A DNA stretch of 64,000 nt from Clytia hemisphaerica. Lineage: Eukaryota; Cnidaria; Hydrozoa; Leptothecata; Clytiidae. Both the position numbers and the translations under genes were made by a program. The DNA lies in NCBI GenBank assembly GCA_902728285.1, contig CACVBU010001312.1, forward strand, positions 124,001-188,000, in the 5' to 3' direction. Each line of letters opens with the position of its first letter. Positions within the stretch are counted from its first letter, which is position 1. Below are positions 1-59,940 of this stretch, piece after piece. The notes beneath the pieces were generated by a model. It had not been told where the DNA came from. It worked only from the letters and a program-made list of their open reading frames with translations, and did not search any database.

Positions 1-2464
1 ACGTCACCTTAGTCATCTTCATGGCAATCGTGTGGCCGTTAGATGTCGTCTTGATCGGTATTTGTCTTCGACGTTGCATAATGAAATATTGGTGAGAAAA
101 ATAATCTCCAAATTTAAGTAGTTTTCTTGTTTGCTGAAGCTATGCCCGCCATTTCCCGTATTTAATCGCCAAGGTTGTGTCTGCCATTATTAATGAAAAT
201 GTTCGGATTGGAAGAGCAATTCTTAATGAAGTTCAAATGTCTGTTTCCATAATGGCAGAACTGAACCCCAAACTTGAAACAACTTCTTATAGACCGAATC
301 CGCAAAGTTCTGTTAGGAACAGTCTTCAACCAAAACTCAAGCAGGTTGTCCGTTCCACCCACAACCAAAAACAAGCAACAAAACTATGCGCAGGTCAATA
401 AATAAATTTACAGCCTTGAGATGTAACTATAAAAATAACGTAACGCGGAATCGGTCTATACAATAGGCTTATTTCAAAACTCTAAAACAGCAAAATTCTC
501 GCATCAAACTTTACACTTGAGATTTTTAGTGCACGGCAATAATGTTCTGCGTCGAATGTGTATAGATAGACCTTATACATTGATTACTCTCAAACTTACA
601 GATCTTTAAAAATAAATGGACGTTGAACTAACTAAAAAATAAATTATGAACTAATTTTTCTCCTTTCCTTTTTTCTTCTCATTTTACTGATTTTGAAAAA
701 TTTCTTGAAATTCTACATCCATCTTTTTTTTCTCAATTCGAAAGATTATTCTTGCAAATTTCAATTTTTTTTCATTTGACGTATCAGGGATAGAGCTGGG
801 AACCACTTGCAACTGAGTCGTAAAACCTATCATTACACCAGACAGATGATGTAGAGTTTCACGCACTGTAAGCCTAAAATTCGATCCTAATCTTTCACTT
901 TTCTTTTCTTTTCTTTTCTTATTTTCTTCATGCATCCAAACTAAACCTTCTTCTATAACTGGCTTTTCCAAAAAAAACAAAAACGTATACCCCATGTTGA
1001 AGAGGTCCAAGGAGGTCTTATGTGGTCAAACTTTATAGTGACTTATAAAAGTTGGTCAAAAATACCTGGAATTCAATGGTGTTTAAACTAGAAATTACCT
1101 GGAATTCCAGAGGGCTAGATTATTTCCGGCTACAAAGGGGTTGGACCTCTTCAACAGGGGTTAGTTATATGGTTTTGACCTAGAAAAGCCCATTATAATA
1201 ATATACTTATTTCAAAAAATCAATTTTGAGAGAGAAAACAATACGAATTTTTGTTTTTCTTTCTTTCAGTGCCAATCATCAAAAAGACGAAGACGAGGAA
1301 AAGGTAATAGAGCTTCTTCACTTTATCATGGAAACACATGTACGTTAGTATATCTCACTCTACCCAAGGCTATCTAATTGAAATCTAAATCAAAGGAAAA
1401 AATAAAAAAAGCGAAGCCTAACTATATAGAAATAAATCGCCGTCAAAATTTCAGCGAGTTATCAAATCGGCGTAATTTATAAATGATAAGTGATATTTTG
1501 ATACCAAAGTTGACAGTGCAGAACACAATGAGAAATTATTTTCTATTTCTGTATAATTTTATAGAACTATGAATTGGTTGACGACAGAGGACAAAGACAT
1601 ATCAACGCGAACGATGACATCGAAGCACCTTTACTGGACAGTAATAAAAACAAACAGAAACGAAGGAAACAAGATACTGACTTATACGATCTTGTTCATG
1701 GGGAAGACGAACAATCGGTAGGATCTTTTGATAACGATCAAGAAGACATTGAGCAATACCAACCAACCAAAAAATATGTCAACATTAAGAACTATGAGAA
1801 TGTGAACAATATTCCTGATCAAAGTACCAATCCAATAGACCATTCACCTTATGAAGATATCACCAATGAGAAAGTAGCTCTCATTTCTGGTAACGATGAC
1901 TCCATTCCTCATTATGACCCCAATAAACGTCAGCAGCTTAATAAGGTTGTGAAGCCGCACCAAGAAGTTGATGCCGTACCTCTTTACCAGCCTAGTGTTT
2001 CTGAAAACAACTACGAAACATTACCAAACTCCCCTCAAAATGCACCTCCACTAGCTCCAAGAACTGCTTCAACGAAACAACCAGAAAATACGTACGAGCC
2101 TGTACCTAATCAAATGAGGAAGCAAGTACCATACCAACCAGGAAACGGAAAATCTTCAAGCAATTATGATACTATTGAGCAAAATTTGAATCAGAAAAGT
2201 GGAAATAATACTTCGGCTTATGAGCCGCCTGTTGAAAAGTACAACACATCATCTAGTAATCATTACGATGGAATTAAGGGAGATGCTAGGATAGAGGATG
2301 AGAATGGAGTTGTTCCACAGTATACTCCCATAAGAAAACCACCGCAACAGGGAGGTTTTGGTGATGGTATTTATGATTCTGTCGCTGATAAACCGAACGA
2401 ACCAGATCATATTAAGGACTTATACGCCGTTGTCGATAAATCACGTATCAACAAGAAAAAATGA
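1..2464 (+). CDS. Receptor gene A, 3' part: membrane exon, juxtamembrane exon and tyrosine-rich tail (partial)
   Basis: Three exons can be joined: before 1-91, 1270-1303 and 1565-2464. Exon 1-91 reads as a hydrophobic segment (VTLVIFMAIVWPLDVVLIGI) followed by basic residues (CLRRC), so it is the membrane exon. It ends in phase 2 before gtgag, the same phase and position as in genes B, C and D. The 34-nt exon restores phase 0, as the small exon of gene B does. The terminal exon gives a ~300-residue cytoplasmic tail with about 14 tyrosine motifs, including YELV, YDLV, YVNI, YENV, SPYEDI, SNYDTI and a final DLYAVV near the C-terminus. SPYEDI and SNYDTI fit the ITIM consensus; YVNI and YENV fit the YxN Grb2-SH2 type. 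The ectodomain lies left of the window. I see the exon logic and motifs directly; signalling function is inferred. The TTG at 1574 is not a start codon, because the exon opens at 1565. Confidence 0.7.
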
Positions 2465-3895
2465 TGAATAAGAATCTTTAGGGACTTGGAAAGGATTTAT
2501 TTATCAATATTTTGTTATCTTTTTGGGTGGGTATTTTTACCTTTTTTAGCGCATTTCTTTTTGTAAATATTTTCTTGAGATAACCTAGATTATATACGCC
2601 TGCATCTTTTACCCCTTTTTTTTATTTTCTTAATATTTTTATTTTAGATTTTTTTTTGTACAAAATAGTTATGAGTGAAAACAGAAAACGCCATTACAAA
2701 GTAATCATTGCCCATAAATGTCAGAAATTTGGCTACATGTAAACCTTAAATTAATTGGAATGCTGAGAGAGAAGCCAGCATGAACATGATATCATATTTC
2801 GTTTCTTTGTCAAGGAAGAAAGCGAAAATTATGACAAACTAAAAATATGAAATTTCAAACTGAGCATTTTATTTTAACATGATAAGTAATACAAATAGAT
2901 ATTGAAAAATATCCAAAAATGACGTTTTAGAGACATTTGTACCACGCTTATTATCACGCTAGAAACACCATGAAACATTAAAAGTAACCAAACAAGTTTC
3001 GATGAATAGGAGGGTTTTAAATCAAACTAGATTCTGATTGGTTTATCTGCCTTGAGGGAATCTTAGAAGGACTTGGTGAACCAGAAATGTTTGCTGCAAT
3101 TGGGTTTTCCCACTCCAAACTGTATTGCACCCTGGAATAGCCTGTACCTATTTGTATTCATAACCAAACCAAATCAATGCTTGAAATTATAAAACGATTC
3201 TTACAAAAGACTTAAAAAAGAAATAAAAAGAGGAGGATTTTTGGCATCCTATGGGTATCATTTCCTACTCCTAGTTTCTTCTCACAGTTGATTTTAAAGT
3301 TTTGATAGTAATAAATGAATCAGATAAATGACTCAATTATGGATCACTGTTGATTGTTAAGCTTTAATGACCTAGAGATACTTTAAGAAAAAACAACAAC
3401 TGCTTTTAGAGATGGATAGGCAAAGATACTTAACTTTTCGACGATCAGCCAATACAGTAGTTTCTCTATAACAAGAAGGAACTTGAATGGAACTGAGTCA
3501 AAAAGTTTCCGCGTTTTAGAAGTTGTATGTGTTTTATTACTCTGATCAGACTTACACATAAGGTAACTAATAAATTATTGAGTTTTAGGTAATGAAATAT
3601 TTTTCATTGCTGGTAATAACTGATGCTAATTGAATGTATTCTGGTTCTGGTTCACTATTTTAAGAGAAAGGCGATCAATTCTAATGACGGATTTTTTAAT
3701 TTAGAATCACGCTTCAATCTCTTACTTTACTTACGGTTAATCAACATATGACGATTTCAATAGAGAGATTGTAAGATGGAATGTAAACCTAAATTTGGGT
3801 AAGGAAACAAGAAAAATACATTGCAGAATTTTGTTCATCTTGTTTCCAGAATATTGTAGAAGAAAAAGAATCAGGCATTATTATAATACACAGAA
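2465..3895. other. Intergenic between genes A and B
   Basis: AT-rich sequence. I found no supported gene. It should hold the 3' end of A and the promoter of B. Confidence 0.5.
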
Positions 3896-6800
3896 ATGTC
3901 AAAAATTGACCATCATTATGTTAAACGGTCGATATTGACTCTATTATTGTTATTTGTTGGATACAACGATGCTCAAAAAGAGCCATTCACCATCACAAGA
4001 CAACGGCATGGTATAAGTGACAAGCTAACATTGATTCCCGATATTTCACGACCCAATTTGGTTAAGAATGAATTTGAAAATTTAGGGATGAACAGGCAAT
4101 GCCTCACTAATGGTGTAGCACGAACGATAGCCTCGTCCGTTGGAGGAGCATCTAAATTGAATTGTTATACTGGTCAAGAATATCAAAGTCAAGGTATGAT
4201 ATAGCCTGGAGATCCATGCTATGATTTCTTATTTTATATACTGATGGCCAAATATATAGCACGGTTAGGGTTGAGAGTTTGAATTTCCCAGATCCTAATA
4301 ACGGTTGAAAACACAGCCAATCAAATTCTACTATTCTTTCACTGGTCACATTTTCTTAGAGAAAACGCAAGTTCCCACTGTCAATTATTTGAGGCAGAAA
4401 TCTGCCTCACAGCTCGTACCGGTCCTGTAAATATCAGATTATAAAAATACAGGACAGGTCTCCTGTCTAGGTATGATACTGAATTTTCTTATCGATTTCC
4501 ATTGAACTGACTGATTCGACTTTTCGAAACGATATTCTTGGGGAGAATGACCCCTTCTACAGGGATTGGAGTATGTCAGATTGTTTCTTTGGATAAGTTG
4601 ACAGGATTTATAAAACCAAGACTCTCACACTCTCCTATATCATTTGTCCCATGACAAAATTCCAAGGATCTATAACTACTTGACTATAATAACGCAAAAA
4701 AAAGATACTGAAGGTAAATAATGCGATCAATAATATCAATAAACGAAGTATTACTTTTTTGATTTATAGAAACGTGTTCGAATGGATTTCTAACAATTGC
4801 AGCCGAATCACAGACGTCCAGTCTCAGGTGTAAAGTATCAAACATAAACGATATCTACATCTGGGATAGGAAGGAGCTTCTGAAAATCAATTTCAAAGAT
4901 TTGGAAGATGAGCTGGAAGCCAAAGATAGTTATTTCGTAAGTGAAATTCATGACATGAACGAAGGAATATTTCAAAATCTTTGTTAGGAGTGTTTTGTTT
5001 GAAAGGTGTCTGCGCATTTTTTTTATAAGAACATATTATGAACTTGTTATGAACAAGTTAAGAACGTTTTAAGGCTTGGTGGACTCAAACACCCAATTTC
5101 TTAGAAAAATTGGCAAATACACTCACAAAATGGTGAATTTAAGAACATTTCTAGGCTTGAAACTCAAAAAGTTAAGAACATCCGAAGGCTTCAAAAATTT
5201 TGGATGTTCTTATAAAAAAAACGTGTACTTCTGTGCAGTCGAGGTCGTGTTTTCATTTATTTCATCGATTGCGTCCAGTCTCTTCTGAGTGTCTTTCTCA
5301 GCTTGTTTGAGTACACCAGATATCGTTAGTCTTATACTCGCGAGATGTAACCGAACCACGGTGTATCGGCAAGAGCTGTGATTCCCGTATATCATTAGAG
5401 TAGGTGACTATACTCTATACTACCTCATCGACAAGATAATTCCCTCCCTTTTTTAGCACGCATTATGTTGGACGTAAAGCGTGATTTAATATTTCTGGTT
5501 TAGGTTTTCAAGACGAGAAGCAAATGGGACGGATTACTGGTGCAAATATTATATCAATGTCAATCGACGACAGCAAACCTTGCAAAACAAGAATTGTGTA
5601 CAGTGATGAAATTTACTGGCATAAGACACCGTAAGATTTCCAATTAGTTAATAATGCAGGAAGTTTTAAATGACCTGTCATTCGTCATAACTTTAATCAT
5701 CATAGTGATGACATTGAGTTTGTTAAGCAGATCCCATGGTTGAAGGTTTACCATCGATTTTTATTTCTGAAAAACTAAACCGCTGCTGCACCGCATCCCC
5801 TTGAATACTTTAGTCAGAAACAGACAACGTTTAGAATTCTGTCAAGCTGCTATTTAACTCTCTATTTAGAGATAATTCTTAAAAATTTTGATATGAAAAC
5901 ATTGTTGCGCATTAATCTTTCTAGACATAATAAATCCAGACAAAATGAATAGCCCAAAAACAGTACAATCACCCGGCCGTGCTGAGAATTTTTTTACAAG
6001 TAAAGACCGAGATTGCGTTTCAAAAAACAACCCGGGTAAAATCTTTATCTCCGGGAATGTGTAGAAACTGGTATTTTATACTTTCAGATCCTCTACCAAA
6101 CAAGATCGAAGAAATTTTATACGGCGATGATACACGACCATTCACGCCAACGCCTACAATACAAACAACAGGGAATAATACAACCATCGTTGTTGCGAAG
6201 TCTCAAAAACTTAGCAATGGTATACCAACAGGCACAATTATAGGGATTTCTATAGCAATTGTTATCGTTTTGGTGGCAGCTTTATTGATCGTAGCTCTCG
6301 CGTGCTATCGAAAAAGGTAATAAAAAACATTATAGGTAACTTCAAAAAAGTATCCAGTGCTTCATAATATAAATTGTACGCTCTTTTACAATATAATTAT
6401 AAGAACAATTTTATGAGAACAAGGCTCGATTATGGGTATTCCGGGTAAAACTAATGATAAATTATAAGAGCAATCCAGAATACAATACAATCAAGAGAAT
6501 TCAGATGGCAAAGAAAATGCTGATAAGCATATTCTAAGTCAATAAGTGAACATCTTAAGAACATTTAAATGAGAACAACTAAGAACATTTACTCTTTTTT
6601 TCTAGGAAAAAATCAAGGAGCGATAAACATAAGGTAAGATTTTAAATGACATAGAGTTGATTGTTTCAATAACATGCACATGTATTTTACGAATTTAGAA
6701 ACAAAACTCTTTACTTTAAGTTCTTTTATCATATTTAGTGTATCATCTTGTCCAGTTTAATTCTATTAAATTTGGTTCTCTCGAAAAGCCTAGTGATTTG

Positions 6801-7611
6801 CCCAGCTCGAGACCGAGCTTCATCATCAGTACTTTTGCGTTAGGGGCCAGATTTTCCAAAAACTACCTTCAGAAGACATCAGAATGTACATGAATCAAAA
6901 AGGTGAATAGTTGAATCCTAGACCGATATTTTGAATCAACAATAGCTTAATAAAGGAAACGTCTCTCAACTTTAAATGTGGTTGGCAATCACTTATACTA
7001 AGGTAAGCTGTTATTCATCATCGTTCTAGGATCCTGCGTACAACAGCTTCAAACGGAACCGTAAAGAACAGAATCTTAATGGAGAAACATCAACATTATA
7101 TACAGAACCTAAAAATTTTCTACCAGAATACAAAGAGCTAGAGCCAGGAGAGATCCAAAAGAAAAATCAAGGCACACTTAACAGTGACACCTACCATTAT
7201 AGCCGAGCTCGTGACACTACCCCTCGTCGAATAAATGTTTTAAAAGGCAACCATGACAACCACTCAAATGATAGCACCTTAAGTGGTGGTTATAGTACGG
7301 TGAAGGATGTCGATTTAAACCAACCAAAAAATCAGCCGAATGAAGCAGTGATTGGCCATCAAATTCCTGGGAATGAATATGCAGTCGCACCAATAGAACA
7401 TGAAAACTCTACACAAGACAATAAGATGAATCATAAAGCATTGGACAGTGGTTACAGTTCAATACGTTTTGACCAGGAGAAAGGTAAAACAGCGTTGGGA
7501 AAGGACTCGAAAAAAAGAACGTTGAATTATTATAGTACACCGATCAGTGATCGACCAGAGACTCCACCAGAGATTGCAAAATTGTACACCAAAGTCAATA
7601 AAAAGAGGTGA
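3896..7611 (+). CDS. Receptor gene B: six-cysteine ectodomain, one membrane helix, tyrosine tail (476 aa)
   Basis: Six exons join without a frame break: 3896-4193, 4770-4936, 5504-5630, 6088-6316, 6606-6633 and 7030-7611, with intron phases 1,0,1,2,0. Residues ~12-26 form a signal peptide (SILTLLLLFVGYNDA). The ectodomain has six cysteines in the contexts QCL, NCY, TCS, LRC, YQC and LCTV; LRC is followed 11 residues later by Trp (IYIW) and the fifth Cys sits in LYQC, which resembles Ig strands B, C and F. A Thr-rich stalk precedes the helix (TIIGISIAIVIVLVAALLIV), then CYRKR. The 28-nt exon encodes KKSRSDKHK. The tail has PEYKELEP, GGYSTV, SGYSSI (ITIM consensus), NYYSTP and KLYTKVNKK at the C-terminus. 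An AATAAA lies at 7786. Genes C and D are paralogues; B is the most diverged complete member. Function in recognition or signalling is inferred. The ORF 5979-6320 is only intron read-through into exon 4. Confidence 0.82.
5009..5229. mobile_element. MITE of the acacgTTTTTTtATAAGAACAT family, copy 1 (gene B intron)
   Basis: It begins with gcattttttttataagaac and ends with gttcttataaaaaaaacgtgt. The interior repeats gttaagaac-type words. Related copies lie at 21888, 24911 and 43309. Confidence 0.65.
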
Positions 7612-9864
7612 TTCATCAACAAAAATTAGACTGTATGGTGCAATCTATGAATTGCTGACTGTTTCCAAGTTTATTACACGAATGAAAAGATACAAAATGA
7701 GACTGCATTGGCCTGTGTTCTAATTCGATTTACCATTGAAATAGACTAAAAAGACCTGCAAAACTCGACTTCTACCTTTGATATTAATAAAATGTCCACG
7801 ATAGATGATTTTATGGTACAGGATTGGACAAAATTTCACGAAATACACGTTGTTTATAAGAGCATAAGGCTCAATTTTAGTCAAAACCTAAGAACGATCC
7901 CAGTTTCAGATTTCAGAAAACTTATAAAAAAACTTGTAATGAATGATTGAATGTATGTAGGCGACATATGTTTCGAAATTTCATGTTCAGACTAACGTAC
8001 TGTACCAAAAAAAAAACTTTTCATTTTTTCTCTTGAATATTTAAAAGCTTCTCTACTTATAATGAAAACAAATTTAGGAGAAAATCCCAATTTTTTGGAT
8101 TCAATCATGAAATTTTTATTTAGGTTCCCTAAGACTCAGATAATATTGAAAATGTAAACAAACTTTACTGTTTTTATTTTTTTGAACAATTTCTCAAAAA
8201 TTCAAGTGATTCTGTTGTGAAAATTCTCAACGCGTATAGTGAGTGGATAGAGTGTTGTTTTTTTTAAGTATAAGAAAATCTATATTGAATTTTTTTTCAA
8301 TTCTCCATAATTTCTTCCACAAGAGTATTTCACACAACGTTGTAGATATAGACCACGGTCTTTAGAAAGACGTTGAAACAACGCTGCTTTGCAAGCTGGA
8401 AACGACTTGGATGAAGGGATTATGGGTCAATTTGTTTAGGATATAGCTAGAATATGTCATTTCACAGTCGAAATGATTCATGGGTAATCAGGACTGCTTG
8501 CACTTTAGTAACGACTCCCGGTTGGCAAAACGAAAAAATCTTCAAAATTTATCAAAACTTTTGACCAATAGTGTTTCGTCATTAGCACGCAGTGGTCCTG
8601 CTTACCCATTACGCTTTGCCAATGTGAATTGACCTATAGAGGAAATTCTATGACTTAGATTCTGTATATTATCTGGTGCAGTTGCTGACAAGTGTGTTTA
8701 TGAAGGGAATTCCCGGAGAAAAAATACACAAGTAATGACAGATAATTTGTCATAACTCATTTTAGTTCTGACGGCTCAGCAATCCTAAGTCAAATGGGCA
8801 ATATCATAGATTTCATTAAGATACATCTTCTGAGAGCTTCTTAAAATACCTAAGGATCAAATTGATTAGACTTAATCAGGTAATTATGCCTGATTAATTA
8901 ACGTGCTAAAATGACGATACTTGTATACTTCAAAACTTACAATAATGGAAAAGGTAATTCCTAGATTTTTTTTTCAAACTCAGCAAATTGGAATATGAAA
9001 CATAAGAGAAAGACTTTTTCTAAGAAACGTCCGCTAAAGTGTTACGTGTTTTAATAACTGACAGCAAAAAAATGACAAGGTAATCCATAATATGCCATTC
9101 TTTTAGAAATACTTTCAAATTCTTGTTGCCATAGTTACCGTATAAGAGTGGCTTTATGCGATAATGCGGAGAGATGAATATGTTAATTTCTCTCAAGTTT
9201 CATGACAAAAAATTTCACTTCTCGTCATAAATACACACATAGCTCCTCTTTATTATGATATTATTTTTATTGTCATCGTCATCAACTATAAGAGAACAAG
9301 ACTATTGAAATGACAAGAGAGAAAAAAATAGATGTTTATATCAACTCATTTAGTAAAGCCAGACAGATTTTCAGTGATTTTTTGATATTGTGATTAGCTT
9401 GGTAGTTTCATTTTAAGGGTTTTTCTTTATAGAAACAGATCACTTTGGTATTGGAAGTTTATCAGCTTGAATCACGCGGTTTATGTTTGGCTAACGTAAC
9501 GCGATTCGAGCCTTTCGAGAGATTCTTCTCTCATCATCTAATTTTTGGTTCTCCTTTCGCCAGAAATGACGTTATTGATGTGAGCAATTAACAGTTGAAT
9601 TGGCTGCTCATAATAACAGTTTAAAGAACAGGAAATCAATGTTGTGTTAACATGCTGGCTTGAGCTTTCACTTTTGTAGAAAATTTTAACTGGACGTGAC
9701 GTGGTCGTACAGTAGTTAGGTTTTTTTACTTCATTATACTTTTACTTTTATTTTTAACCATATACTTTTGTTATCAGATTACATAGAGTCCATGATACGT
9801 GATATCATTTGAATGTTGGTTTGGATGATGTTTTCAAATCATAATTGTTTAACTTGAAAGATTT
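7612..9864. other. Intergenic between genes B and C
   Basis: AT-rich, with a poly(A) signal for gene B at 7786. No coding sequence or clear element was recognised. Confidence 0.45.
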
Positions 9865-10032
9865 TACTTCCTCCTAGATTGATCGTTTTACTGAAACAAG
9901 AGGAAATATTGTTTAATGTTCCAGTCATTTTCATAGAAAAGACAAGAAAATATGTCTTTTCTATGAAAATGACTGGAACATTAAACAATATTTCCTCTTG
10001 TTTCAGTAAAACGATCAATCTAGGAGGAAGTA
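9865..10032. repeat. Perfect palindrome with 80-bp arms upstream of gene C
   Basis: The 80 bases starting tacttcctcctagattgatc are repeated exactly as their reverse complement after an 8-base spacer (agaaaata). No mismatch was found by eye. It ends 33 bp before the ATG of gene C, so it may lie in the 5' untranslated region. The right arm includes a pyrimidine-rich ttgtttcag, a possible 3' splice site. Confidence 0.93.
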
Positions 10033-10064
10033 GGCAACAAGCATAAACTGGCCACTTAAGAACA

Positions 10065-13000
10065 ATGACTTTGCAAATGAAGAACACAAGAGCTTTGTGC
10101 GTCTGTTTTTTCGTTTCGTTCAACATATTGGGAAGCATAAACGGTAACTTTATCATTGAGAGAAAAATTGGGGACTCGGATGAGATTATATTACTGGACA
10201 AAAACAAGGATCCGTTAGATATTTTGGCAGGTGGCACTTTTATGGATCACCGCACGTGTAGGGCTGATACTAACAAGGGCAATATTCGAAGGAACATTGG
10301 TTTATCATCACAAGACCCTGGCAGAAAGATTAGTTGCTATACTGAAGGTGAATTACAATCAGGTAAGACTTAAAAATATAGTTTGAGAAAATGAAATGAA
10401 AGTAGAGGTTAGTAGAACTCCTTTAATGTATCAAATTAGTTATTAAAGGTCACGAAAAAACTCTAGCCTGAGTAAAGTGTATTCTAGCGGTATGGACTGT
10501 TGTAGCCTGGTCACTATAAGGTAAACAATGTAAGTGATATGCATTTCCTTGAATCGTATAAACTATCGTTTTGTACGTGACCCCTTTTAAAATCGATCAA
10601 GTGACTTAATGGTTATAGGAGTGACTTGATTTCTTAATAAGATTCCCATGATGGTTGTGGTATACCGAGAATCCTTAGCTTTTTAAGTCAACTGAAGCAT
10701 AAAACACCAACATACAGTTTATGCCCTAGGCTTCTGCTCATACTCCGACGAAAAAGTTCCTTATAGCATGAACATATAAACGACTGGACATCCATCTCCT
10801 TTGTCTTTTTGTAGAAAAGGCTGCTAGCTTCGTTGCCGCCTCGTTAAAATCATAAAATGAAACAATAGATTTTGATGATATACCACTTGGGAGTACCTTG
10901 CTAACAACGTCAAAACTTTGACAAAAGTCTCTGTTGTTCTACTCTTCTCAAGTCTTTTATCTATATCATAACAAAGATAACAGAGGCAAAATCATCGTCA
11001 GCTTGTCAAAACTCCGACTAAATTTTCTAAATTTTGACTTAAAAGTGTCTAATAATTTTAAAAAGTGTCGCATTCTAATTTCGATATTCTTATGACACAG
11101 GCTCTAAACTTGGCAAGCTATTTTTTCAAGTCATAAAAAAAATTATTGAAGTGACAAAAGGGATTCAAAAGTATACACGCAGTTGAAATTCTGCATTTTA
11201 GAGTTGAAAATGTTGATAGAATATATTACAAACTTGTGAAAAAATTTGAAAATAATTTTTTTGTACATTAGGAGTAATGTTCAAGCTCTATCAATCCTTT
11301 TACCTAAATAATTCAAAGAAATAAAATTATGACGGAATATTGTCGGATTTTTCATACCAATTTTGAAATACAGGCGGCAACGAAGCTCGCTTCAAAGAGA
11401 CAATAAAAGATAGATGTCCAGTCGTTTATATGTTCATGCTTATAGGAAGTATATCTATAGCGGTCTGCGAATCAAGCTACTTTAACCCATATTCAATAAA
11501 TCTTCAGAATGTGGAAGCACTAATGGGAACGAATTCAGAACCATTCCCAAACAAACTACTCAAATCCCTACGAGATGTTCAAGCGCTGGATGGGAAAATA
11601 TAAAAATATGGGGTTTCAAAGAGCGTGATAGACTCGGTTGGCAAGAATTAAGTAATGGAGAGAAAAGAAACGTTAGATTGTCCAGCAGAGCGTTAGTAAG
11701 TATCATGAATGAGTTTGATTACTTTGATTTTACGCTTAAACTTTCTGAAATTATCACCAGTCTGGAATCATTCTATTTTCTCTAGGCAAGCATTCATTTC
11801 AGCGACTGTAGTACAAAGATAGAGCCTTCGGCTATGGTATGCCAGGTCGTGGGTTCAATACCAGGCCAGGTCATATCAAAAATTTCGTACTTGGTACAAA
11901 ATGGTACTTGATGCCTCTCTGCTTTGTACTATACAATCAAAGAGAAGGATCAAGAGCGAGTGGAGCATTTGACGAAGAAAAAGTAGCATTTTTTCCTACC
12001 TTCGGGGAAAATTCGAGAATAATAAGGTTTATATAGCCATTCAAAAAAGAAATTATTTGGTAAAAACGCCTTATAATACCTCTTTACAGAATTTTGAAAA
12101 TCGAAGAAAATTGGATGGACTTTTAGGAGTTATCACGTACACATGCCCAAATGGAAATGTTTACTGTGATGTTCTCAAGTTTGCTGGAGCGGCTAAATGT
12201 AAGTGTGAAAACTTTTCTTCAATGTCATATATTGGGAAAATGCTTTTTAAAGCTCAGGTTTAATCAAAATTTATTGTTTTCGACTCAATAAAGTTGTATT
12301 TCAAAAATCACCATGTATTTTAAAATACAACTTTATTGAATTCGCTCTACGAAGAGTATTGAGCACTCTTTTAATGGTTGTTTTCGACTCAACAAACAAC
12401 AAGCTCAAAAAAATGGCATGACATATTGGGAATTAACACCACGGTCACCTACTAATTTGAAGTCTATTAATTCTCTTAGTATAGCGTCTACCAACAAGCA
12501 AGGTGCTACAGTTGAGTCTCTCTATAACTCGAACCCGCAAGGAAAAATTACTTGTCCAAGCTAAGGAAACATTCGATTTATAGAGAGTCGAGTTAAAGAG
12601 ATTAGTGTAATTCAATTTCTTTTAAAATGTTCTATAGATCCTCTACCATACGCAAATTCAATAGACGACCTGATAAAAAATCTCAAGCAAATCGATGATG
12701 GATATCCAATAGGAGCAACACCACCCACACCAGGGAGAAACACAAGATCACCAGTAACAAAAGATGACGAATCTTCAAATAACAGTGGTCTCATTATTGG
12801 TGTCGTATTTGGTGTCTTTGTTGTCATCTTTGCAATGGTTCTGGCATTCTTCTTGTATAGGAGGTAAAAAAATCTTACACAGTCAAATACAAACACTTGC
12901 AATGTCACAAAAGTTGCCAAAAGGCGTACTGATTCCCCATTTCTCGAAGCTGAGAATAAACTGGAGCCAAACCCTTACAATCCTTACTTTCAGCAAAAGG

Positions 13001-14155
13001 TTGACCCTTAGAGAGACATTCGATTTAGAAGATGAAAAACCAGACCCTTTAAGCACGCACATGACCAGCACCAATTTGTGCCTAAGTATCCCCCTTCGGG
13101 GGTTATTAGCGAGTTTATGTATTTGCATTTTTGAGGACGCGGTAAAGTGACTGAAGCGATCTGAAAAAACCCGCAGTTCTGACCAGCAAAATCGAGGACG
13201 GTAAAAGTGCTGATTTACCGTCGTCCTCACTTAGTCAGGATCTAGTCAAGTTAGAACCTTATCGTCTCCGTCGCAGAAAAACACACATGCATAAACTCGG
13301 TATTAAAGTGGTGCCTTTCATGCATGAATCACAGTATTATTTTCTTTTTCTTCAAGACGTAAAAGAAGCCGCCGAGCCAAGAAACAAACGCTCTCACCCG
13401 TATACGCAAAATGTGAAGTCGACATAAACTCCACACACGGAGAAGAAGAAGAAAGCAAACTCATACACCAGTACTCCGACTCCAATGCATACGCTTTACC
13501 GTCAAACCCACAACCTGAGTACCGTGAAATCGAACCTGAAATTCGCTATTCACCTAGAAATAATCATATTTCCATGGAGACTCCGAAACAAAACAACAGC
13601 CATTATGTGTCAGCTACTTCTACACAAACCAATAGCAACCAAGAGGGACCTGAAGATGAGTACCAGACCCCTAATATAGTGCCTTCACCACAGAATGGAA
13701 TCACATCTGAGAGAAGTATAACAAAAGACAATATTAACGATGAAGCACTAGATTATAGCGTTCCTAATAAAACTGGAAAGTCAGAATCTAAAAACAATAC
13801 TAAAAATGATACGCCTTACAAAGAGCGTTCTGTAGGATATAGCGTTCCTGATAAAGCTGGAGACTCGGAACGGAAAGGCTATACTGAAAACGTGAAAGAA
13901 CCTTCGCCAGAGTATAGTGTTCCAGGATCAGCGGTAGATCATGTAGACGGTGGAGCTACCGATGATGAAACAGCGCCTTTAAAGGGATATAGTGAGCCGG
14001 GACAAATAATAGATAATGGTAATAATGATAATGATAATGGTGATGACGATGACGAAGTTAATTATTACAGTACACCAGCAACCAATGAAACGGATGCATT
14101 GGTGAGACCGAATTCAGCGTTGTACGCTAAAGTGAATAAAAATACGAAGAGATAG
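10065..14155 (+). CDS. Receptor gene C: six-cysteine ectodomain, one membrane helix, tyrosine tail (539 aa)
   Basis: Exons 10065-10362, 11508-11695, 12090-12198, 12638-12863 and 13357-14155 join to exactly 540 codons, with phases 1,0,1,2. A signal peptide (ALCVCFFVSFNILGSING) precedes NFIIERKIG. The six cysteines are in RTCRA, SCYTE, ECGS, TRCSS, YTCPNG and YCDV. The third exon (RRKLDGLLGVITYTCPNG) is nearly the same in gene D. A short Pro/Thr stalk leads to a membrane helix (GLIIGVVFGVFVVIFAMVLA) and FFLYRR. The tail carries SPVYAKC, NAYALPS, PEYREIEP, DEYQTP, four YSxP motifs (two YSVP-type GYSVPDK/DYSVPNK, EYSVPG, GYSEPG), an acidic Asn/Asp run, NYYSTP and SALYAKVNK near the end. There is no small juxtamembrane exon. 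Introns hold a 690-bp foldback element, a tRNA-like SINE and an intron block shared with gene D. An 80-bp-arm perfect palindrome ends 33 bp before the ATG. Alternative downstream Met codons exist at the N-terminus. Confidence 0.85.
10757..11449. mobile_element. Foldback element in gene C intron 1
   Basis: The left end (ttccttatagcatgaacata, from ~10758) and the right end (tgttcatgcttataggaa, to 11448) are inverted copies. The arms are about 80-90 bp and include cgactggacatc and cttcgttgccgcc. No protein is encoded. Confidence 0.75.
11808..12000 (+). mobile_element. tRNA-derived SINE-like sequence in gene C intron 2
   Basis: A tRNA-like head (agatagagccttcggctatg, then ggtcgtgggttcaatacc resembling a B box) is followed by a body with tggtacttgatgcctctctg. 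It looks like a SINE copy. No functional tRNA fold was confirmed. Confidence 0.45.
12284..12343. repeat. Small inverted repeat
   Basis: caataaagttgtattt and aaatacaactttattg are inverted around a ~25-base loop in a gene C intron. Confidence 0.6.
13128..13290 (+). other. Intron block in gene C conserved in gene D, with hairpin
   Basis: The intron before the tail exon matches gene D at 19438-19560, including the shared runs gatttaccgtcgtcctca and cagaaaaacacacat. Within it, gaggacggtaaa and tttaccgtcgtcctc (13194-13228) can pair as a hairpin. It is either a conserved intron signal or a remnant of the duplication that made C and D. Confidence 0.7.
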
Positions 14156-14788
14156 AGGACTGAGAAAGTTAAGCTTAAATATCAAAGTATGTAAATTTTA
14201 AAGCTTTGCATTGGCTTCAAAAGGAAATTTTGAAGAAATTTAAAATACCTTCTTCTCGTAGAGCATTTAATGACATTTGTTAACCGGTTACTACTTCAAA
14301 GCAGGCTACACGGCTTTTTGCGCAATGCAATTGGTTCTTTTCGCATGACGACGGGCCTACACTGCCCAGAGTTGCCCGTTGTTAGGAAAATTCGTTGACA
14401 TCAGTGCGTTGACATCATGTCTCTCATTTTTTATTTCTGACGTCAGAAATTATAACAATTTTTAATCTCTTTTCGCTTGTATTTTTCACTTTAGTTCGCT
14501 ATTTTTCCTGGATAAAGCGCTAAAAATAGTATTTTCTAAAAATTTCTTGAAATTTTCCCTTCGAAGCCAACGCAAACTTTTATCTTACATCATTTTGTAT
14601 ACATATAATACACTAATACGAAAATAAGAAATCTTACGAAAATACTTTTCGACAAAAAATGAACAAAGAAAAGCAAGAAAAACCACATAAGATTTAATTC
14701 AATTTTACTACTACTATATTGAGTTTAAAATCGCACATAACCTCCTGCTCTCTTAGAATCGCTTTTAAGTAACTTACAACAGTATCCC

Positions 14789-15130
14789 GGGGGAGGAGGG
14801 ACTTAGGCAAACTTCGGTACGTGGACGTGTCACTGGTCAGAGTTCCTTTTTTAGGCTTTGAAGATATCTGACAGGGTTCCAGATTGATTTCCAAAATATG
14901 TATCTGACAGGGGCGACTATTGGGAATTTTTGAAAATTTATAGGGTGGAAATTAGAAATTTTTTCAATTTTTCGTCTACTTTTAATCATTTTGGCCACTT
15001 TTCAGGGTGAAAACGGGAAAATTTATACATTTTTCTTATTGACAGGGTCCCAGACTTACCAAATATTCATATCTGACAGGGTCCATTTTTCAAACTCCAG
15101 CGGTACGTCCCCGTTGGCTGTCAAGATCAG
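14789..15130. mobile_element. Possible G-rich MITE with internal ctgacaggg repeats
   Basis: It starts cccgggggaggagggactta, much like the element at 39005, and contains several copies of tctgacagggtcc. The right end near gtccccgttgg is not clear and no target duplication was seen. Confidence 0.4.
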
Positions 15131-15595
15131 TGCATCCCCCCGGAACAATAGCCTAAAACTAGACTTGCCAGGCTCTGCAATACGAAAAGGTTAATTTAAA
15201 GAATGCTTGCTCTGATTCTTGATCTAGTCGATAACTATATAACCAATATAATTTTAAAAGGTAATATCTGTAGATAATGTAGAATTTTCAAAAACATACA
15301 CTGTAAATAATTGTTCTTTTTAAAAATATAATTTGAATTGCTTTTCTTCTCAAAATTTCTGTTGCAAATACATATATACCTTATATAAAAGGTGTTCTAA
15401 TGTGAGCTAATTGTAGTATAAAGAGATCTTGCAAAAGATGCAATTTTTACATTTATATTGATAGAAACGCGAAGCGATTATTTCTCAAAAATATCTGAGG
15501 ACTGAAAAAATTTTCGGAATTTGCTTGCAGACAATCATCCAAATTTTGAAAAATGGTTTTATTTAAATACACATTTAAACGGTGGTTTTTTTAAC

Positions 15596-15876
15596 CAATA
15601 AGGTGAGACTAATTTGATTAGTTGTTTTACGGGCCCGACCGACCCTGAAATTCCAAAAATCGAAATCGAAATTAAAATAAAATCGATTTTTATTTTCATT
15701 GCTTTTATACAGACTGTCAAATTTTCAAAATTTTGGTAGTTTTTCTAAGGTTTTGAGAATTTTATGTGTTGCTGCCTTTTTAGTAGATTTTATAGGTGAA
15801 ATTGAAATTCTATTTTTATTTTTATTTTTTCTCCGACCGACCCGTAAAACAACAAATTAAACTGGCCTCGCCTAAT
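15596..15876. mobile_element. MITE with ~35-bp terminal inverted repeats
   Basis: gttgttttacgggcccgacc on the left pairs with ggtcggtcggag-type sequence plus cccgtaaaacaac on the right. The outer ends (aaggtgag / ctcgcctta) also pair imperfectly. It lies between genes C and D. Confidence 0.65.
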
Positions 15877-16055
15877 AAAGTATCTTCTGAAGGCGGAAAT
15901 TTTCTATTCCGCTAACTATTTATACAGAGTGAATGGAATATGTTCAAATACTCAACAAAAAAGGAAAAAACGTGAAACAGGATAAAATCTTAAATATTCT
16001 AGAAGTTCATTAGACATGTCATCACTACGAACATATATATTGAGTGTAATAGAAC

Positions 16056-19000
16056 ATGGCTTTGAAAGTGATACATACAAAAGCTATGAATATTGTTTTA
16101 CTCTGTACCCTCCATTTACTTGGTAGTGCTTATGGAAACTTAATCATTGACCGAAAAGGTGGCAAATCATCGGATGAGATTGAATTACTATACAATGACA
16201 AAAACCAATCAGATGTTCTCGATGGTGGCGCTTTCGTCAACGGCCGCACTTGTAGGGCCGGTACAAACAGAACGAATATTGGACGGGTTGACCAGAGTTC
16301 CGAGATAAGCTGTTATAGTGAAGACGAACTTATATATACAGGTAAGGCCAAAAGTTAAGGCACCAAAAAAATAAATCCTTTAAAAACTTATCGAAAAATA
16401 GGTCCACTAATGACAAAAAAAATGAGTAGCGTGAATAATCTTTACAAAGGCTTTAAATCGAGCTTTAAATCGATCTTAGCTAGATTCAGGTATAGCTCAT
16501 CGAAATCATCGAAATCCGAAAATCATAGCGTCAGCCCCCCCTGCTGGTTGGGGGGGGGGGTTACACCCTAAATTTTTCCCAAAAAAGGAGGGGGCTGGAA
16601 GTACACCACTTTTTTGGGGGGAGCTAAAATCTCATCACTTAATGTGGAGGCTAAAATAATTCAGCTTAATAGTTGGCTTCAATTACTCAAATTGAAGCCC
16701 ATGAATCTGAAAAAGTCTTTTTTTATAGAAAGTGTCCAAAATATTTTATCTTAAACTTAGAACTGGACGCAATTTACATTGGAAAACCCTTCATTACTGG
16801 ATCAATTTTTTGAAAGTGTCTAGGGTCAAAAGTCCTGGGGGCTAACAAAAAATTCCTAAATTTTTTGGGGGACTTAAAACTCAGGGGGGGGAGACCTAAT
16901 TTTTGCCTGGGACCTAAACCCAGGCTGACGCTATGAAAATTTAATGTCTGTTTTAAATTCGCTTTTTACAGAATGTGACGATATTTCTGGTTTATTTAAA
17001 ACGATTTACAAAAACACTACACATATCAACCTCCGATGTTCAAATGCTGATTGGAAAATAATAAAGATATGGGGTTTCGAAGAAAGCGGTAGGCTTGTTT
17101 GGCAGGACTTAGAACACCGAAATCAAATCAATATGAAAATTTCTGGTAGAAATTTAGTGAGTATCATTCATTCCGTTAAATCTTATCCTGTCTAACAATG
17201 TAGCACCCCTGTTTATTCAGACCATTTCCATTGGTTCTACTAACTCTATTCAGGAAAAAACTCCTTCACTCAAGTTAAAAAAGATTTGCCAAATAATCAG
17301 AATTTCAATCATTCGAAGTTTGAGCTAAAGATAAAAAGTTCTGTTCCATATGGAGTTTATTCTATGTCAAGAAACAATGCAGTCTGCATTGTTTCTTGAC
17401 TTGGAAGTGCAAAAGGCAAAATTTACTATGAGTAATTAAAATTTCAGTTTCTTTCGTTGCTACAAAAAAATGCAGCCGCAGCGGAAGAAAAGTGAAGCCA
17501 TCCGATCCAAAAGAAGAGAAAGGGTTTGAACGAAATTGAACTGAAATTGAAATCGAAAACTTTCGGTTATTTAAATTGAAGATTTCTTATTTGTAAAATT
17601 ATGAGAAAATTCCTTGCTACGGTATGTATGTAATACCATTTTTCTTCCCAAAAGATGTGAAATCTCTTAGTTACAACTGTAACTTGTTGAGCTGAGCCAG
17701 CTTAGATAAAGTTTCCATGAGACAAGAAGCTCAAAAAGCAGCAAAATCGATAACAATAATAATGATAAATGTTCTCTATCCTAGATCTTTTCCGCGAACG
17801 AAGACCGGCGGAAATTGGATGGACTTCTAAGCGTTTTAACATACATATGTCCCAATGGAAAGGATCATTGCGATGTGTTGAAATTTGTAGGCAAGAAAAA
17901 ATTTCTAAGGCTCTGGGAGGGCCCTGCGTTTATTTTTCAACAGGTACAAGGTCAGCATAGCTTTCCAATACATGGCGTCCTCCAGCTTTTTGGTCCCCCC
18001 TAATATGAGCTAAAATCCCCCTGGCCTTTCCCCCCCCTGTCTTTAAAATTTGTGCGCCCCCAATGGAATCCCCCTAACGATGTATAAGGTTGCAAAGTGA
18101 TGATCCAGACTCGCCTCAATTCGCAAGCTACTATAGCAAAAAAAAGACTTTCAAAATCCCAAGAAAGACAGGCTCATAAGCCTGAATGCCCAAACACACC
18201 AGGAAGGTCTGTATTTATCCTATTACTCCCCCCACTAGGTAGAGGACTGAATATACCCCCTATTCGCCTTTCTCCCCCCATCAAGCTTGAAATTTTCACT
18301 TCCCCCCTGGCACCAAAATCTGATTCCCCCCCCCCATCTTCCTGGGGGGGGGATGATCCCATGCAATAATGGAACTGAATGTTGAATAAACAATAATTTT
18401 GTTGAAACTTTTTTTCAATAGATCCTCTTCCACGTTCAAGTTCAATCGATGATCTCGTCAAGCAACTTAAACCATTTGTCAAGCAACTTAAACCAATTGA
18501 TTATCGATCTACAACTAAACCAACACTTTCGCCATCAGTGCCCACCACAAAACCAGCAGAGACCTCCACAAAACCACAGGCGACCAGCACAAAACCACAG
18601 GCAACCAGCACAAAACAACGAGAGACCAGTACAAAACAACCTGACACCAGTACAAAGCAGCCAGACACCAGCACAAAACCACAGGCGACCAGCACAAAAC
18701 CACAGGCGACCAGCACAAAACCACAGGCAACCAGCTCCAAACCACGAGAGACCAGTACAAAACCAAGAGAGACCAGTACAAAACCAAGAGAGACCAGCAC
18801 AAAACCACAGGCGACCAGCACAAAACCAAGAGAGACCAGTACAAAGCAACCTGACACCAGTACAAAGCAGCCAGACACCAGCACAAAACAACGAGAAACC
18901 AGTACAAAACCAAGAGAGACCAGTACAAAACCAAGAGAGACCAGCACAAAACCAAGAGAGACCAGTACAAAACAACCTGACACCAGCACAAAACCGGAAA

Positions 19001-20484
19001 AAGCCACAAATCCACTAGACACCAGTACAAAATCCCCAGAGAATTCTACAAAACAACCAGCTTACAGCACAGAGAAACGAAAGAATTCATCTTTGTGGAC
19101 AGAACCAACAGAAACCACCACAACAAAATCACCAATGACAGACGACGCTAAATATTCAAATAACAATGGTCTTATTGTCACCATTATCGTAATCATTATC
19201 GTTATTGTCATCCTTGCAATGGTTTTGGCATTGCTCTTGTACAGAAGGTGAGAAATTAAAAAGATATAATTCAAAATTCAAAAGGACCATTACAATAGTT
19301 TGTATTAGAGGGTTTTTAAGAGCCAAAATATTTCATTCGCGTCGCAGGTACTTTTTAAAATAGCGTGTCCGAAATAGATTCTACTTTTTGAAATCATTAC
19401 AGACGTTAACCTTTGATATTACAGCGAATTTATGCTCTTTTGAGGACGGCGGAGGGCCTGAAGCAGTTTGAACCCGCAAAGTCGGGAGGTAAAAATGTTG
19501 ATTTACCGTCGTCCTCAGCGAATCAGAAGCTAAACGTCTCTGTCACAGAAAAACACACATATACGTAAAATCGCTAATTTCTTACTTTTCTTGATTTGTT
19601 ACAGATATGCAAGAAAAAGGGCCAAGGAAGAAACGATTACACCCATCTACGCGCAAGTTGACGGAAACTCTCCACCGGTGGAATACACCGAATTAAACAC
19701 ATACGCTTTACCGTCGAACCACCAACCTGAATATCATGACATCGAGCCTAAGAATAATCGATTCTCTATGAAAGCTTCAACACAAAATGAAGAGCATGAT
19801 GCAATAGTGGTCATTTCTACTCAAAGTAACCCAACAAATGAGGAACTCGAACCCGAATATCAGACCCTGGAAGTTTCACCTTCCGAAAAGGCTGGAATAA
19901 TATCTGAGAAGAGTCAAAGTAACCCAACATATGAGGAACTCGAACCCGAATATCAGACCCTGGAAGTTTCACCTTCTGAGAAGAGTTCAATGCAATCTGA
20001 ACAAGGCGATACAAATGGAGACGACTCGATTGATCCTGATGATAGTGTGCCTGATAAAAGTGGAAAACCAGAATGTGAATACAGTATTAATGACACACAC
20101 GAAAAGAATTCCTCCGAAGCGTACATTGCACTTGACAAAGATGGACACTCAAAATCGAAAAGCCAAAATGAAGAGGATATTGAGGAATCTTCGGATATTA
20201 AGGGCGATGATATTCCCGAGCAAGAATCCAGTGATGGCAACAAACTGAAGACTAGAGATCAAATTGAAAATGCTGCCCTTGACGATGAATCAAATCTGGT
20301 AACAGAGTACTGTGAGCCGGGAAAAATAATAAATAATGGTAAAAATGATAATGATAATGGTGATGACGATGACGAAGTTAATTATTACAGTACACCAGTA
20401 ACCAATGAAACGGATGCATCGGTGAGACCCAATTCAGCATTGTACGCTAAAGTGAATAAAAATACGAAGACAGTTGAATACTGA
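16056..20484 (+). CDS. Receptor gene D: six-cysteine ectodomain, mucin-like repeat stalk, membrane helix, tyrosine tail (780 aa)
   Basis: Exons 16056-16341, 16972-17156, 17785-17950, 18422-19247 and 19605-20484 total 781 codons with phases 1,0,1,2. The signal peptide (IVLLCTLHLLGSAYG) is followed by NLIIDRKGG; the cysteines are in RTCRA, SCYSE, ECDD, LRCSN, YICPNG and HCDV. The stalk is expanded by about 21 heptads of the type TSTKPRE, likely O-glycosylated. The helix is IVTIIVIIIVIVILAMVLAL, then LLYRR. The tail contains TPIYAQV, VEYTEL (ITIM consensus), TYALPS, PEYHDIEP, two copies of PEYQTLEV, EAYIAL, NYYSTP and SALYAKVNK. The exon-3 donor is uncertain: the position that aligns with gene C's gtaag reads ttctaag, and the first downstream GT that keeps phase is a weak gtcagc at 17951. 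The intron after exon 1 carries a 413-bp TIR element. AATAAA lies at 20610. Function is inferred from architecture. Confidence 0.8.
16523..16936. mobile_element. G-rich TIR element in gene D intron 1
   Basis: The ends are catagcgtcagcc (16524) and ggctgacgctatg (to 16935), a perfect inverted pair. The interior is low-complexity with many runs of 6-10 G. An aaaat flank occurs on both sides. Confidence 0.75.
18000..18365. repeat. C-rich low-complexity stretch in gene D intron 3
   Basis: Many runs of 5-10 C separated by AT-rich words; the style matches the interiors of the G-rich MITEs. Clear terminal repeats were not found. Confidence 0.45.
18562..19002 (+). repeat. 21-bp tandem repeat coding the mucin-like stalk of gene D
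   Basis: About 21 in-frame copies of a 21-bp unit encode T-S-T-K-(P/Q)-x-x, with four variants (PQA, PRE, QPD, QRE) in a shuffled order. A few degenerate units follow to about 19050. The low codon divergence and shuffled order suggest unequal exchange. Long open frames on the - strand here are by-products of the repeat. Confidence 0.93.
19438..19560 (+). other. Intron block in gene D matching the gene C block
   Basis: This is the counterpart of the gene C block at 13128-13290, with a hairpin arm pair gggaggtaaa / tttaccgtcgtcctc at 19484-19516. It lies between the membrane exon and the tail exon. Confidence 0.7.
19822..19982 (+). repeat. 93-bp internal duplication in the gene D tail
   Basis: A segment coding SNPTxEELEPEYQTLEVSPS occurs at 19822-19889 and again at 19915-19982, 93 bp (31 codons) apart and nearly identical. 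It doubles one tyrosine motif (PEYQTL) and is absent from gene C at the matching place. Confidence 0.88.
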
Positions 20485-26522: not shown

Positions 26523-26825
26523 GTGAGTTTTGATTTTTCAATATCTTCTGAAATACATTTCCTTTTTTTATGATTTTTTCTGTGGCCACTCATGAATATA
26601 GCTAGAACACACTTATATCAGTTTAATTTGCAGGAACTTACAGGATTTTGGAGAAATTGGCTATTATTTTGCTCTGTAATTTAGGGGTGATCTGCACATT
26701 GCCTGAGCTTTTCTCTTTTAAACATCCTGGTCATGTAATACAAGACTCTAAGGATCAAGGATTATTCTGAAAGGTACTCACTTGATTCTGGTTTCATTTT
26801 CTAAAAGATTTACTTTGGATTCAAA

Positions 26826-27729
26826 GTAATGTTCTGTTTGAATAATTTGCTAAAAATGGCCACGTTTGTTATAATTTTATGGTAAAATGTCCTCTGAAAA
26901 GAGACATTTTTTTCTCAACAAAGCCAATTCTATTAGCTGTTCCTAATTTGAGAAGAGCTTTTCTGAGTGAGGACAAAGCAGTGAGCAATTATTGCCCTTG
27001 CCCAATCCCCAATAGCAACCATTTAACTTGTTTTTCTTTATGAGTTTCTACTAGGGTACTGTAGCCGCCCAGGTTTGGGCTCGACTATTTCCATGAGAAA
27101 ACCAGGCTATACCCAACAGCTAGCTTGACTTGAAAGTGACTTCTAGTTTCAAAATAATAACAAAAATTACTTATTGCAAAAATTTTGGTTACATTTAATT
27201 TTATTTTTAAATTACCTCTGTAAAATTGATTTGCTTTTATTTTGATCTTTCAGAATGGCCGAAAACCATAATGCTAAGTTGCAAAGGATTTGCAGAATAT
27301 GTTGTATGGTGATCAAAACCGATAAATCTTACACCGAAAAAAGACATATCACCGACTTTACAACCGAGATGAAAGCATTGTTTGACATTGACGTGTTGAG
27401 TGATACTCATGCCCCGCCTTATCTTTGTGGAAATTGTAAAGAGAAGCTTGAACTCAAGAGAAAACATCCGCAATACTCAACTGAAACTGAATTGTTTAAT
27501 TTTCTGGAACATCGTGATGAATGTGATGTTTGCAAAAGATTGGTACCAATACGCTTTAGTTTAAAGACAGTTGCACCCTCACTTCCTAAATTCGAGAAAA
27601 TTGGTAATGATTATGGCTTCCTTAAATTGAGGACTGATGAAGACTTTCTAGTACTCTCAAAACCAGTAAATCTAGAAAACACAGTTAAAATATATATTAA
27701 CTGTCAAATTGATCCTAGTTGTCAATGGA
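26826..27729 (+). repeat. Parent copy of a ~0.9 kb tandem duplication
   Basis: This segment covers the end of the 5' UTR intron and the first ~475 bases of coding exon 1. It recurs at 29191-30091. This copy keeps an open frame. Confidence 0.9.
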
Positions 27730-38917: not shown

Positions 38918-39004
38918 ATTACCATATACTACTGGGCCGCACTTAATCGTGCCATCCAGTCGTTAAAAAAGCTACCTGCAGAGTCGTTTCAACGACACTG
39001 GTAC

Positions 39005-55502: not shown

Positions 55503-55509
55503 GTGAAAA

Positions 55510-59830: not shown

Positions 59831-59940
59831 TTTGGGTGTCGTGTGCAATAAACTCCTAACTTTTCCTTTTTTCAAATAAAACTCAATCATTTTCAAAAAT
59901 TGAGTTGAACAGGTCAGTGGAAAAAAAAGTGGTGATCGAC

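What the first reader, a model, noticed from the sequence alone, without database searches (positions are those of the whole stretch)
1..20484. Tandem array of four membrane receptors with tyrosine-rich tails
Four paralogues in the same orientation share exon phases, a signal peptide, a six-cysteine ectodomain, one membrane helix and a tail packed with tyrosine motifs. The array and the fast divergence of ectodomain and stalk are what one expects of self/non-self or immune receptors. Architecture recalls Hydractinia Alr genes, but I cannot show homology.
Basis: partly seen in the sequence, partly recalled or inferred. Interest (0 to 1): 0.85.

Follow-up and report, generated by a model that had tools for sequence, protein, structure and literature searches.

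The report
Tandem family of cnidarian membrane receptors
A jellyfish-relative's genome carries a row of five related cell-surface receptor genes with an unrecognised outer domain and inner tails full of tyrosine switch motifs; they look like real signalling receptors, but a role in self/non-self recognition is unproven.

Summary
B, C and D are intact spliced models with shared intron phases (one GC donor, in D). Gene A is cut by the window edge, but its missing exons lie just upstream, and a fifth gene, Z, lies beyond. All five encode a leader-like N-terminus, a six-cysteine ectodomain, a stalk, one membrane helix and a tail with 9-18 tyrosines. C/D dN/dS is well below 1, so at least these two are under constraint. 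The host is probably a hydrozoan cnidarian (COX1, recalled signature). Four exon-3-type exons with the same splice phases lie on four other contigs, so the family also looks dispersed. No credible Pfam or PDB match to the ectodomain was found and an I-set immunoglobulin profile test failed, so Alr membership is not shown. Faster ectodomain divergence is not supported; stalks vary most. C and Z tails are rich in YxxP (Crk-type sites), A and D tails in Yxx(L/I/V); a C-terminal cassette is nearly identical between C and D, read as gene conversion. Best reading: an ectodomain-orphan family of phosphotyrosine-docking receptors that works like Alr/fester-type receptors; an immune role is plausible and untested.

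The parts
1..91 (+). Gene A, end of membrane-helix exon (exon 4); exons 1-3 and the rest of exon 4 lie upstream of the window (C898:122288-124091)
1270..1303 (+). Gene A, small exon (phase 2 in, 0 out); chosen by splice sites and phase only
1565..2464 (+). Gene A, tail exon, 299 aa, 18 tyrosines, 12 Yxx(L/I/V)
3896..4193 (+). Gene B exon 1: leader and N-terminal ectodomain (C1, C2)
4770..4936 (+). Gene B exon 2 (C3, C4)
5504..5630 (+). Gene B exon 3 (C5, C6)
6088..6316 (+). Gene B exon 4: stalk and membrane helix
6606..6633 (+). Gene B small basic juxtamembrane exon
7030..7611 (+). Gene B tail exon to stop
10077..10362 (+). Gene C exon 1: leader and N-terminal ectodomain
11508..11695 (+). Gene C exon 2
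12090..12198 (+). Gene C exon 3
12638..12863 (+). Gene C exon 4: stalk and membrane helix
13357..14155 (+). Gene C tail exon, 7 YxxP motifs
13992..14150 (+). C half of a C/D tract identical at 152 of 159 bases (2 synonymous and 5 replacement codon differences in 52 codons), read as gene conversion of the C-terminal cassette
16056..16341 (+). Gene D exon 1: leader and N-terminal ectodomain
16972..17156 (+). Gene D exon 2
17785..17890 (+). Gene D exon 3; 3' border uncertain (GC donor modelled; a later GT in the same phase exists by eye)
18422..19247 (+). Gene D exon 4: long Thr/Pro-rich stalk and membrane helix
18542..18995 (+). 21-base in-frame tandem repeat (about 21.6 copies) coding the TSTKPxx stalk of D
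19605..20484 (+). Gene D tail exon, 8 Yxx(L/I/V), one NPxY, one ITAM-like spacing
20312..20470 (+). D half of the C/D tract

Best explanation
Five tandem paralogues of a cnidarian (probably hydrozoan) family of type I receptors with an orphan six-cysteine ectodomain; exons of the same type also lie elsewhere in the genome. SHOWN by sequence: shared gene structure, anatomy, constraint on C and D, shared tyrosine cassettes in Z, B, C and D, near-identity of a C/D tail tract, dispersed exon-3 relatives. INFERRED: a ligand (possibly the same protein on a neighbouring cell) engages the ectodomain, held out by a probably glycosylated stalk of gene-specific length. Clustering lets a Src-type kinase phosphorylate the tail. 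The tail then acts as a docking strip: YxxP-rich tails (C, Z) recruit Crk-type SH2 adaptors, and Yxx(L/I/V)-rich tails (A, D) recruit Syk, SHP or other SH2 proteins. Different genes would thus give different outputs from related ectodomains. An immune or allorecognition use has about one chance in three to two in five; developmental adhesion is about as likely. The rivals below differ in context and do not all exclude this mechanism.
For: Gene models and phases; paralogy by BLASTP and leave-one-out HMM; one membrane helix per protein; C/D dN/dS 0.23 and 0.37. Against 2000 shuffles of each tail, YxxP is in excess in C (7 vs 1.28 expected, 0 of 2000) and Z (4 vs 0.98, p 0.009); Yxx(L/I/V) in A (12 vs 2.67, 0 of 2000), D (8 vs 2.01, p 0.001) and B (4 vs 1.40, p 0.038). 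PxYx[ED][LI]EP occurs in 4 of 5 (Z, B, C, D) and a C-terminal YYxTP...LYxKV cassette in the same 4 (by eye). C/D tail tract 152/159 identical, in tails 43% identical overall. Exon-3 relatives on C216, C899, C672 and C888: 4 of 4 inspected have phase 0-in/1-out and GTAAG donors, against 0.005 for random places. Crk SH2 binding to pYxxP predates animals and Bcar1 orthologues with YxxP repeats exist in Hydra and Nematostella (PMC5043372, passages).
Against: No transcript, protein, phosphorylation or ligand evidence. No known fold. YxxP is not in clear excess in A, B or D (p 0.83, 0.15, 0.07) nor Yxx(L/I/V) in C or Z (p 0.59, 0.21). Gene A shares little sequence with the rest and lacks the PxYx[ED][LI]EP motif. 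Constraint on the ectodomain and the lack of faster ectodomain change argue against a polymorphic allodeterminant. Only C and D are close enough for dN/dS, with dS near saturation. Borders of the dispersed exons were placed by eye, so the 0.005 control is rough.
Confidence: 0.65

Rival explanations
1. The genes are true Alr-family members (IgSF histocompatibility genes of Hydractinia or a relative), so diverged that profiles miss them. They would bind homophilically and decide fusion or rejection.
For: Probably cnidarian host; tandem cluster; single-pass with tail tyrosines. Alr proteins too have low mutual identity and their IgSF membership rests on domain architecture and structure prediction (PMC11067881, passages); 3 putative Alr homologues lie outside the complex (PMC11876637, passages). 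Exons 2+3 form a phase 1-1 unit; a W 11 residues after C4 occurs in Z, B, C and D and a Y-x-C at C5 in B, C and D, a spacing recalled from Ig B, C and F strands; A lacks C4 and C5 together, which suggests a C4-C5 bond.
Against: I-set profile-profile score 9.8; at least 6 of 60 column shuffles scored higher (12.5-16.1); positive control 99.9%. No Ig family among Pfam hits at E<=10. A phase-0 intron splits exons 2 and 3, and leader plus N-terminal ectodomain share exon 1, unlike the one-exon-per-Ig-domain layout that I recall for Alr. No direct Alr comparison was possible.
Confidence: 0.15
2. Immune or pattern-recognition receptors for microbes rather than self, with an ectodomain fold of their own.
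For: Tandem and dispersed copies, gene-specific Thr/Pro-rich stalks, differing tyrosine motifs in the tails.
Against: No ligand-type domain recognised; no sign of faster ectodomain change.
Confidence: 0.25
3. Ordinary cell-adhesion or growth-control receptors (neural, epithelial, germ-line) duplicated in tandem; nothing immune.
For: Constraint on C and D; YxxP tails resemble the Bcar1 substrate domain of adhesion signalling (PMC5043372, passages).
Against: Low identity between neighbours and no close paralogue off contig C898 in genome-wide queries with C, Z, B, A and D are, to my knowledge, less usual for developmental receptors.
Confidence: 0.35
4. Chance open frames or decayed copies rather than genes.
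For: D needs a GC donor; the A small exon is weakly supported.
Against: Five genes with the same phases, leave-one-out recovery of four of them by two or more exons, C/D dN/dS below 1, four dispersed exons with the same splice phases.
Confidence: 0.02

Closest known systems
Hydractinia Alr (allorecognition complex) proteins
   Same: Cnidarian, single-pass, gene clusters, low mutual identity (PMC11067881, passages); ITAM/ITIM-type motifs on Alr candidates (PMC12065747, passages)
   Different: No detectable Ig homology here; ectodomain over three exons with a phase-0 intron; tails dominated by YxxP or Yxx(L/I/V) with few ITIM cores; polymorphism unknown
Botryllus fester co-receptors (FcoR)
   Same: Type I receptors of a multigene family in one locus, with long tails that carry ITIM, hemITAM or bare Yxx(I/L/V) motifs; their splicing varies mostly between the Ig/sushi region and the membrane helix (PMC12065747, passages)
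   Different: FcoRs have a variable-type Ig, a sushi and two C2-type Ig domains; none was recognised here
YxxP-rich transmembrane proteins of choanoflagellates and the Bcar1/p130Cas substrate domain
   Same: Several YxxP repeats in a cytoplasmic region, candidate Crk SH2 docking strip (PMC5043372, passages)
   Different: Bcar1 has SH3 and FAT-like domains; of the five choanoflagellate proteins three carry SH2-like domains, and those with named ectodomains have other domains

Membership tests
Hydractinia Alr family | Single-pass membrane protein with leader and tail | tested here: met
   (leader by hydropathy in 2 of 5, by eye in the other 3)
Hydractinia Alr family | Clusters of related genes | tested here: met
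Hydractinia Alr family | V-set/I-set immunoglobulin ectodomain | tested here: inconclusive
   By sequence and profile not met; but Alr domains were assigned with the help of structure prediction, which was switched off here
Hydractinia Alr family | Sequence similarity to Alr1/Alr2 and location in the allorecognition complex | not testable with these tools
   No Alr sequence or named cnidarian genome at hand; the 2022 Alr family paper is not held
Hydractinia Alr family | High allelic polymorphism that predicts fusion | not testable with these tools
   one assembly only
ITAM/ITIM immunoreceptors | ITIM [ILVS]xYxx[ILV] or ITAM spacing in the tail | tested here: inconclusive
Immunoglobulin superfamily | Detectable Ig profile match | tested here: not met
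   (I-set only; 13 of its 15 sequences come from one titin-like contig). The 11 V-set matches of this genome at E<=0.001 lie on 11 other contigs
Crk-docking YxxP receptors (functional class) | Repeated YxxP beyond chance in a cytoplasmic tail | tested here: met

The most novel reading that the evidence does not exclude
An undescribed cnidarian receptor repertoire, nine or more loci, with a new ectodomain fold, fast turnover and phosphotyrosine tails partly homogenised by gene conversion: a second self/non-self or immune receptor system in a cnidarian, independent of Alr.
Probability: 0.2. Interest if true: 0.85.

Novelty: new variant of a known kind. Interest (0 to 1): 0.55.

Why it matters
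In the two invertebrate allorecognition systems compared in PMC12065747 (passages), Hydractinia and Botryllus, candidate receptors carry tyrosine-motif tails. A further clustered receptor family with such tails and an unknown ectodomain in a cnidarian gives ready candidates for receptors, co-receptors or immune sensors of that phylum, and a natural test of how signalling tails are shared between paralogues.

Tried and rejected
Ig fold by sequence: not supported, kept as possible. SUEL-type lectin, a thought from the Y-x-C pattern: no such Pfam match at E<=10. The one Pfam family (ELLD, 1 of 5 members, E 0.09) and the PDB hits (best E 0.14, 1.4, 0.048, 0.77, 6.2) are read as chance: unrelated molecules, partial alignments. 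In one search B has 12 and C 16 Pfam families at E<=10, all below cut-off; all overlap the membrane helix except one tail match of C at E 8.5. A possible extra exon 1 at C898:114117-114428, noticed by eye, did not score in the exon-1 HMM and is not claimed. A GFP search to place the host found nothing and its control rang nowhere; assembly size in the literature gave no species. A bilaterian host, considered because of titin-like Ig arrays on C342, was set aside after COX1. The whole-genome tool scores only its best candidates, so copy number is a lower bound. The species was not identified.

Literature: searches (of which 25 and 47 listed 15 of 35 and 20 of 180 papers). Searches were aimed at this family and gave 0, 1 and 3 papers, none about it by title and abstract start. 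Subscription papers are mostly absent, so this is weak evidence of novelty.
Full report
WHAT WAS CLAIMED. Four tandem receptors at 1-20484 with common exon phases, leader, six-cysteine ectodomain, one membrane helix and tyrosine-rich tail, compared with Hydractinia Alr.

GENE MODELS. Splice sites were placed by hand and checked by script. B (6 exons), C (5) and D (5) translate without stops into 476, 535 and 760 aa. The introns interrupt the frame in phases 1, 0, 1, 2 in every gene; B, A and Z have one more small exon that ends in phase 0. D intron 3 has a GC donor in the model; a later GT in the same phase exists by eye. That border is uncertain.

THE ARRAY IS LONGER. The window is C898:124001-188000 of a 417,433,876-base assembly in 951 contigs. 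I fetched C898:1-130000 and 188001-258000. Upstream lie the missing exons of A and a complete fifth gene, Z. Order Z-A-B-C-D, one strand, gaps 2403, 1431, 2465 and 1900 bp. HMMs of each exon and of the tail end, built from all five, find nothing else in the 258 kb at E below 0.7 (open frames under 20 aa were left out); a nine-member exon-3 HMM nothing below 0.45.

DISPERSED RELATIVES. Weak genome-wide hits (E 0.1-1) led to four exons: C216:621823-621934(+), C899:1130007-1130115(+), C672:911628-911730(-), C888:292737-292839(+). The 4 of 4 inspected begin after an AG in phase 0 and end in phase 1, as exon 3 of the array does, and have a GTAAG donor (3 of 5 array genes do). Random places on C898 meet a comparable acceptor-donor condition with frequency 0.005; the borders were placed by eye, so this is a rough control. 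Best-domain scores of the five-gene exon-3 HMM are 20.8 (C216), 15.7 (C899), 24.4 (C888) and only 9.1 bits (C672); the best background in 258 kb was 8.7 bits in the leave-one-out runs. C672 therefore rests mainly on its splice structure and on likeness to C899 (44%, E 0.11). Three other weak hits (C628, C735, C523) were not inspected.

HOST. The only COX1 match lies on a 14,551-base contig, with three in-frame TGA read as tryptophan. The protein carries IRLELAGPG and other features that I recall as cnidarian, medusozoan in particular; no call tests this, since the PDB hits show no organism names. The species is not identified.

ECTODOMAIN. Six cysteines in each gene, two per exon in exons 1, 2 and 3. 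C3 sits at the start of exon 2 in 5 of 5, C6 near the end of exon 3 in 5 of 5. C4 and C5 are present in Z, B, C and D and both missing from their places in A, where two others appear (by eye). Joint loss suggests a C4-C5 bond (inference). No Pfam family and no PDB sequence matches credibly. An Ig-like spacing (W 11 residues after C4 in Z, B, C, D; Y-x-C at C5 in B, C, D) was tested against 15 I-set domains of the same genome, 13 of them from one titin-like contig: score 9.8, at least 6 of 60 column shuffles higher (12.5-16.1), positive control 99.9%.

STALK. Exon 4 peptides are 75 (C), 76 (B), 104 (Z), 183 (A) and 275 aa (D), with 21-46% Ser/Thr/Pro. D has about 21.6 copies of a 21-base unit; Z a run of threonines and A an internal duplication, both seen by eye.

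SELECTION AND CONVERSION. C/D: dN/dS 0.23 for the ectodomain, 0.37 for the tail; dS 1.4 and 0.9. Both parts are constrained; the ectodomain is not the faster one. Within the tail a 159-base tract is identical at 152 positions, with 2 synonymous and 5 replacement codon differences in 52 codons, while the N-terminal part of the tail has dS 1.3. Recent gene conversion of the C-terminal cassette is the simplest reading.

COMPARISON WITH THE LITERATURE. [quoted passage not shown] another assembly shows 40 on chromosome 3 and 3 putative homologues outside the complex (PMC11876637); ITAM/ITIM-type motifs occur in Alr candidates and in Botryllus FcoRs, which also bear bare Yxx(I/L/V) motifs (PMC12065747); Crk SH2 binding to pYxxP predates animals and YxxP-rich transmembrane proteins exist in choanoflagellates (PMC5043372). 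The 2022 Alr family paper itself was not held.

VERDICT. The array is real, larger than reported, under constraint where it could be measured, and without a recognised ectodomain family. It works most likely as a set of phosphotyrosine-docking receptors. It is not shown to be Alr, and the immune reading is open.

Noticed in passing
window 26824-27733 and 29190-30096: A duplication of about 0.9 kb at 96% identity that carries the start of an ORF (27246-28475) with a CxxC-rich N-terminus; best Pfam matches below cut-off (TTC3 22.9 bits, zf-AD 19.9 of 28), RAG1 importin-binding E 0.35. Possibly a transposon protein.
   Followed up: partly
window 36607-38962 (-) and 54421-55529 (-): Open frames that look by eye like LINE endonuclease and reverse transcriptase pieces.
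   Followed up: no
window 59938-60450 (+): HIRAN-domain ORF over the Pfam cut-off (38.5 bits).
   Followed up: no
window 62101-62991 (+): ORF with a PHD-like zinc-binding domain (30.9 bits, cut-off 29.1).
   Followed up: no
C898:87378-88450 and 104192-105264 (L020, L022): Two alike ORF pairs, a leader-like peptide plus a cysteine-containing piece that looks by eye like a PAN/apple domain, upstream of the array.
   Followed up: no
C898:37268-46942 (L015, L016): Several multi-pass ORFs, two of them close copies in opposite orientation, that look by eye like 7TM receptor genes.
   Followed up: no
C898 about 2700-9800 (L012): ORFs that look by eye like a Polinton-type transposable element.
   Followed up: no
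G000:C900:1-1000 (L051): Mitochondrial contig of 14,551 bases that starts inside cox1, as a linear medusozoan mitochondrial genome might (recalled).
   Followed up: partly
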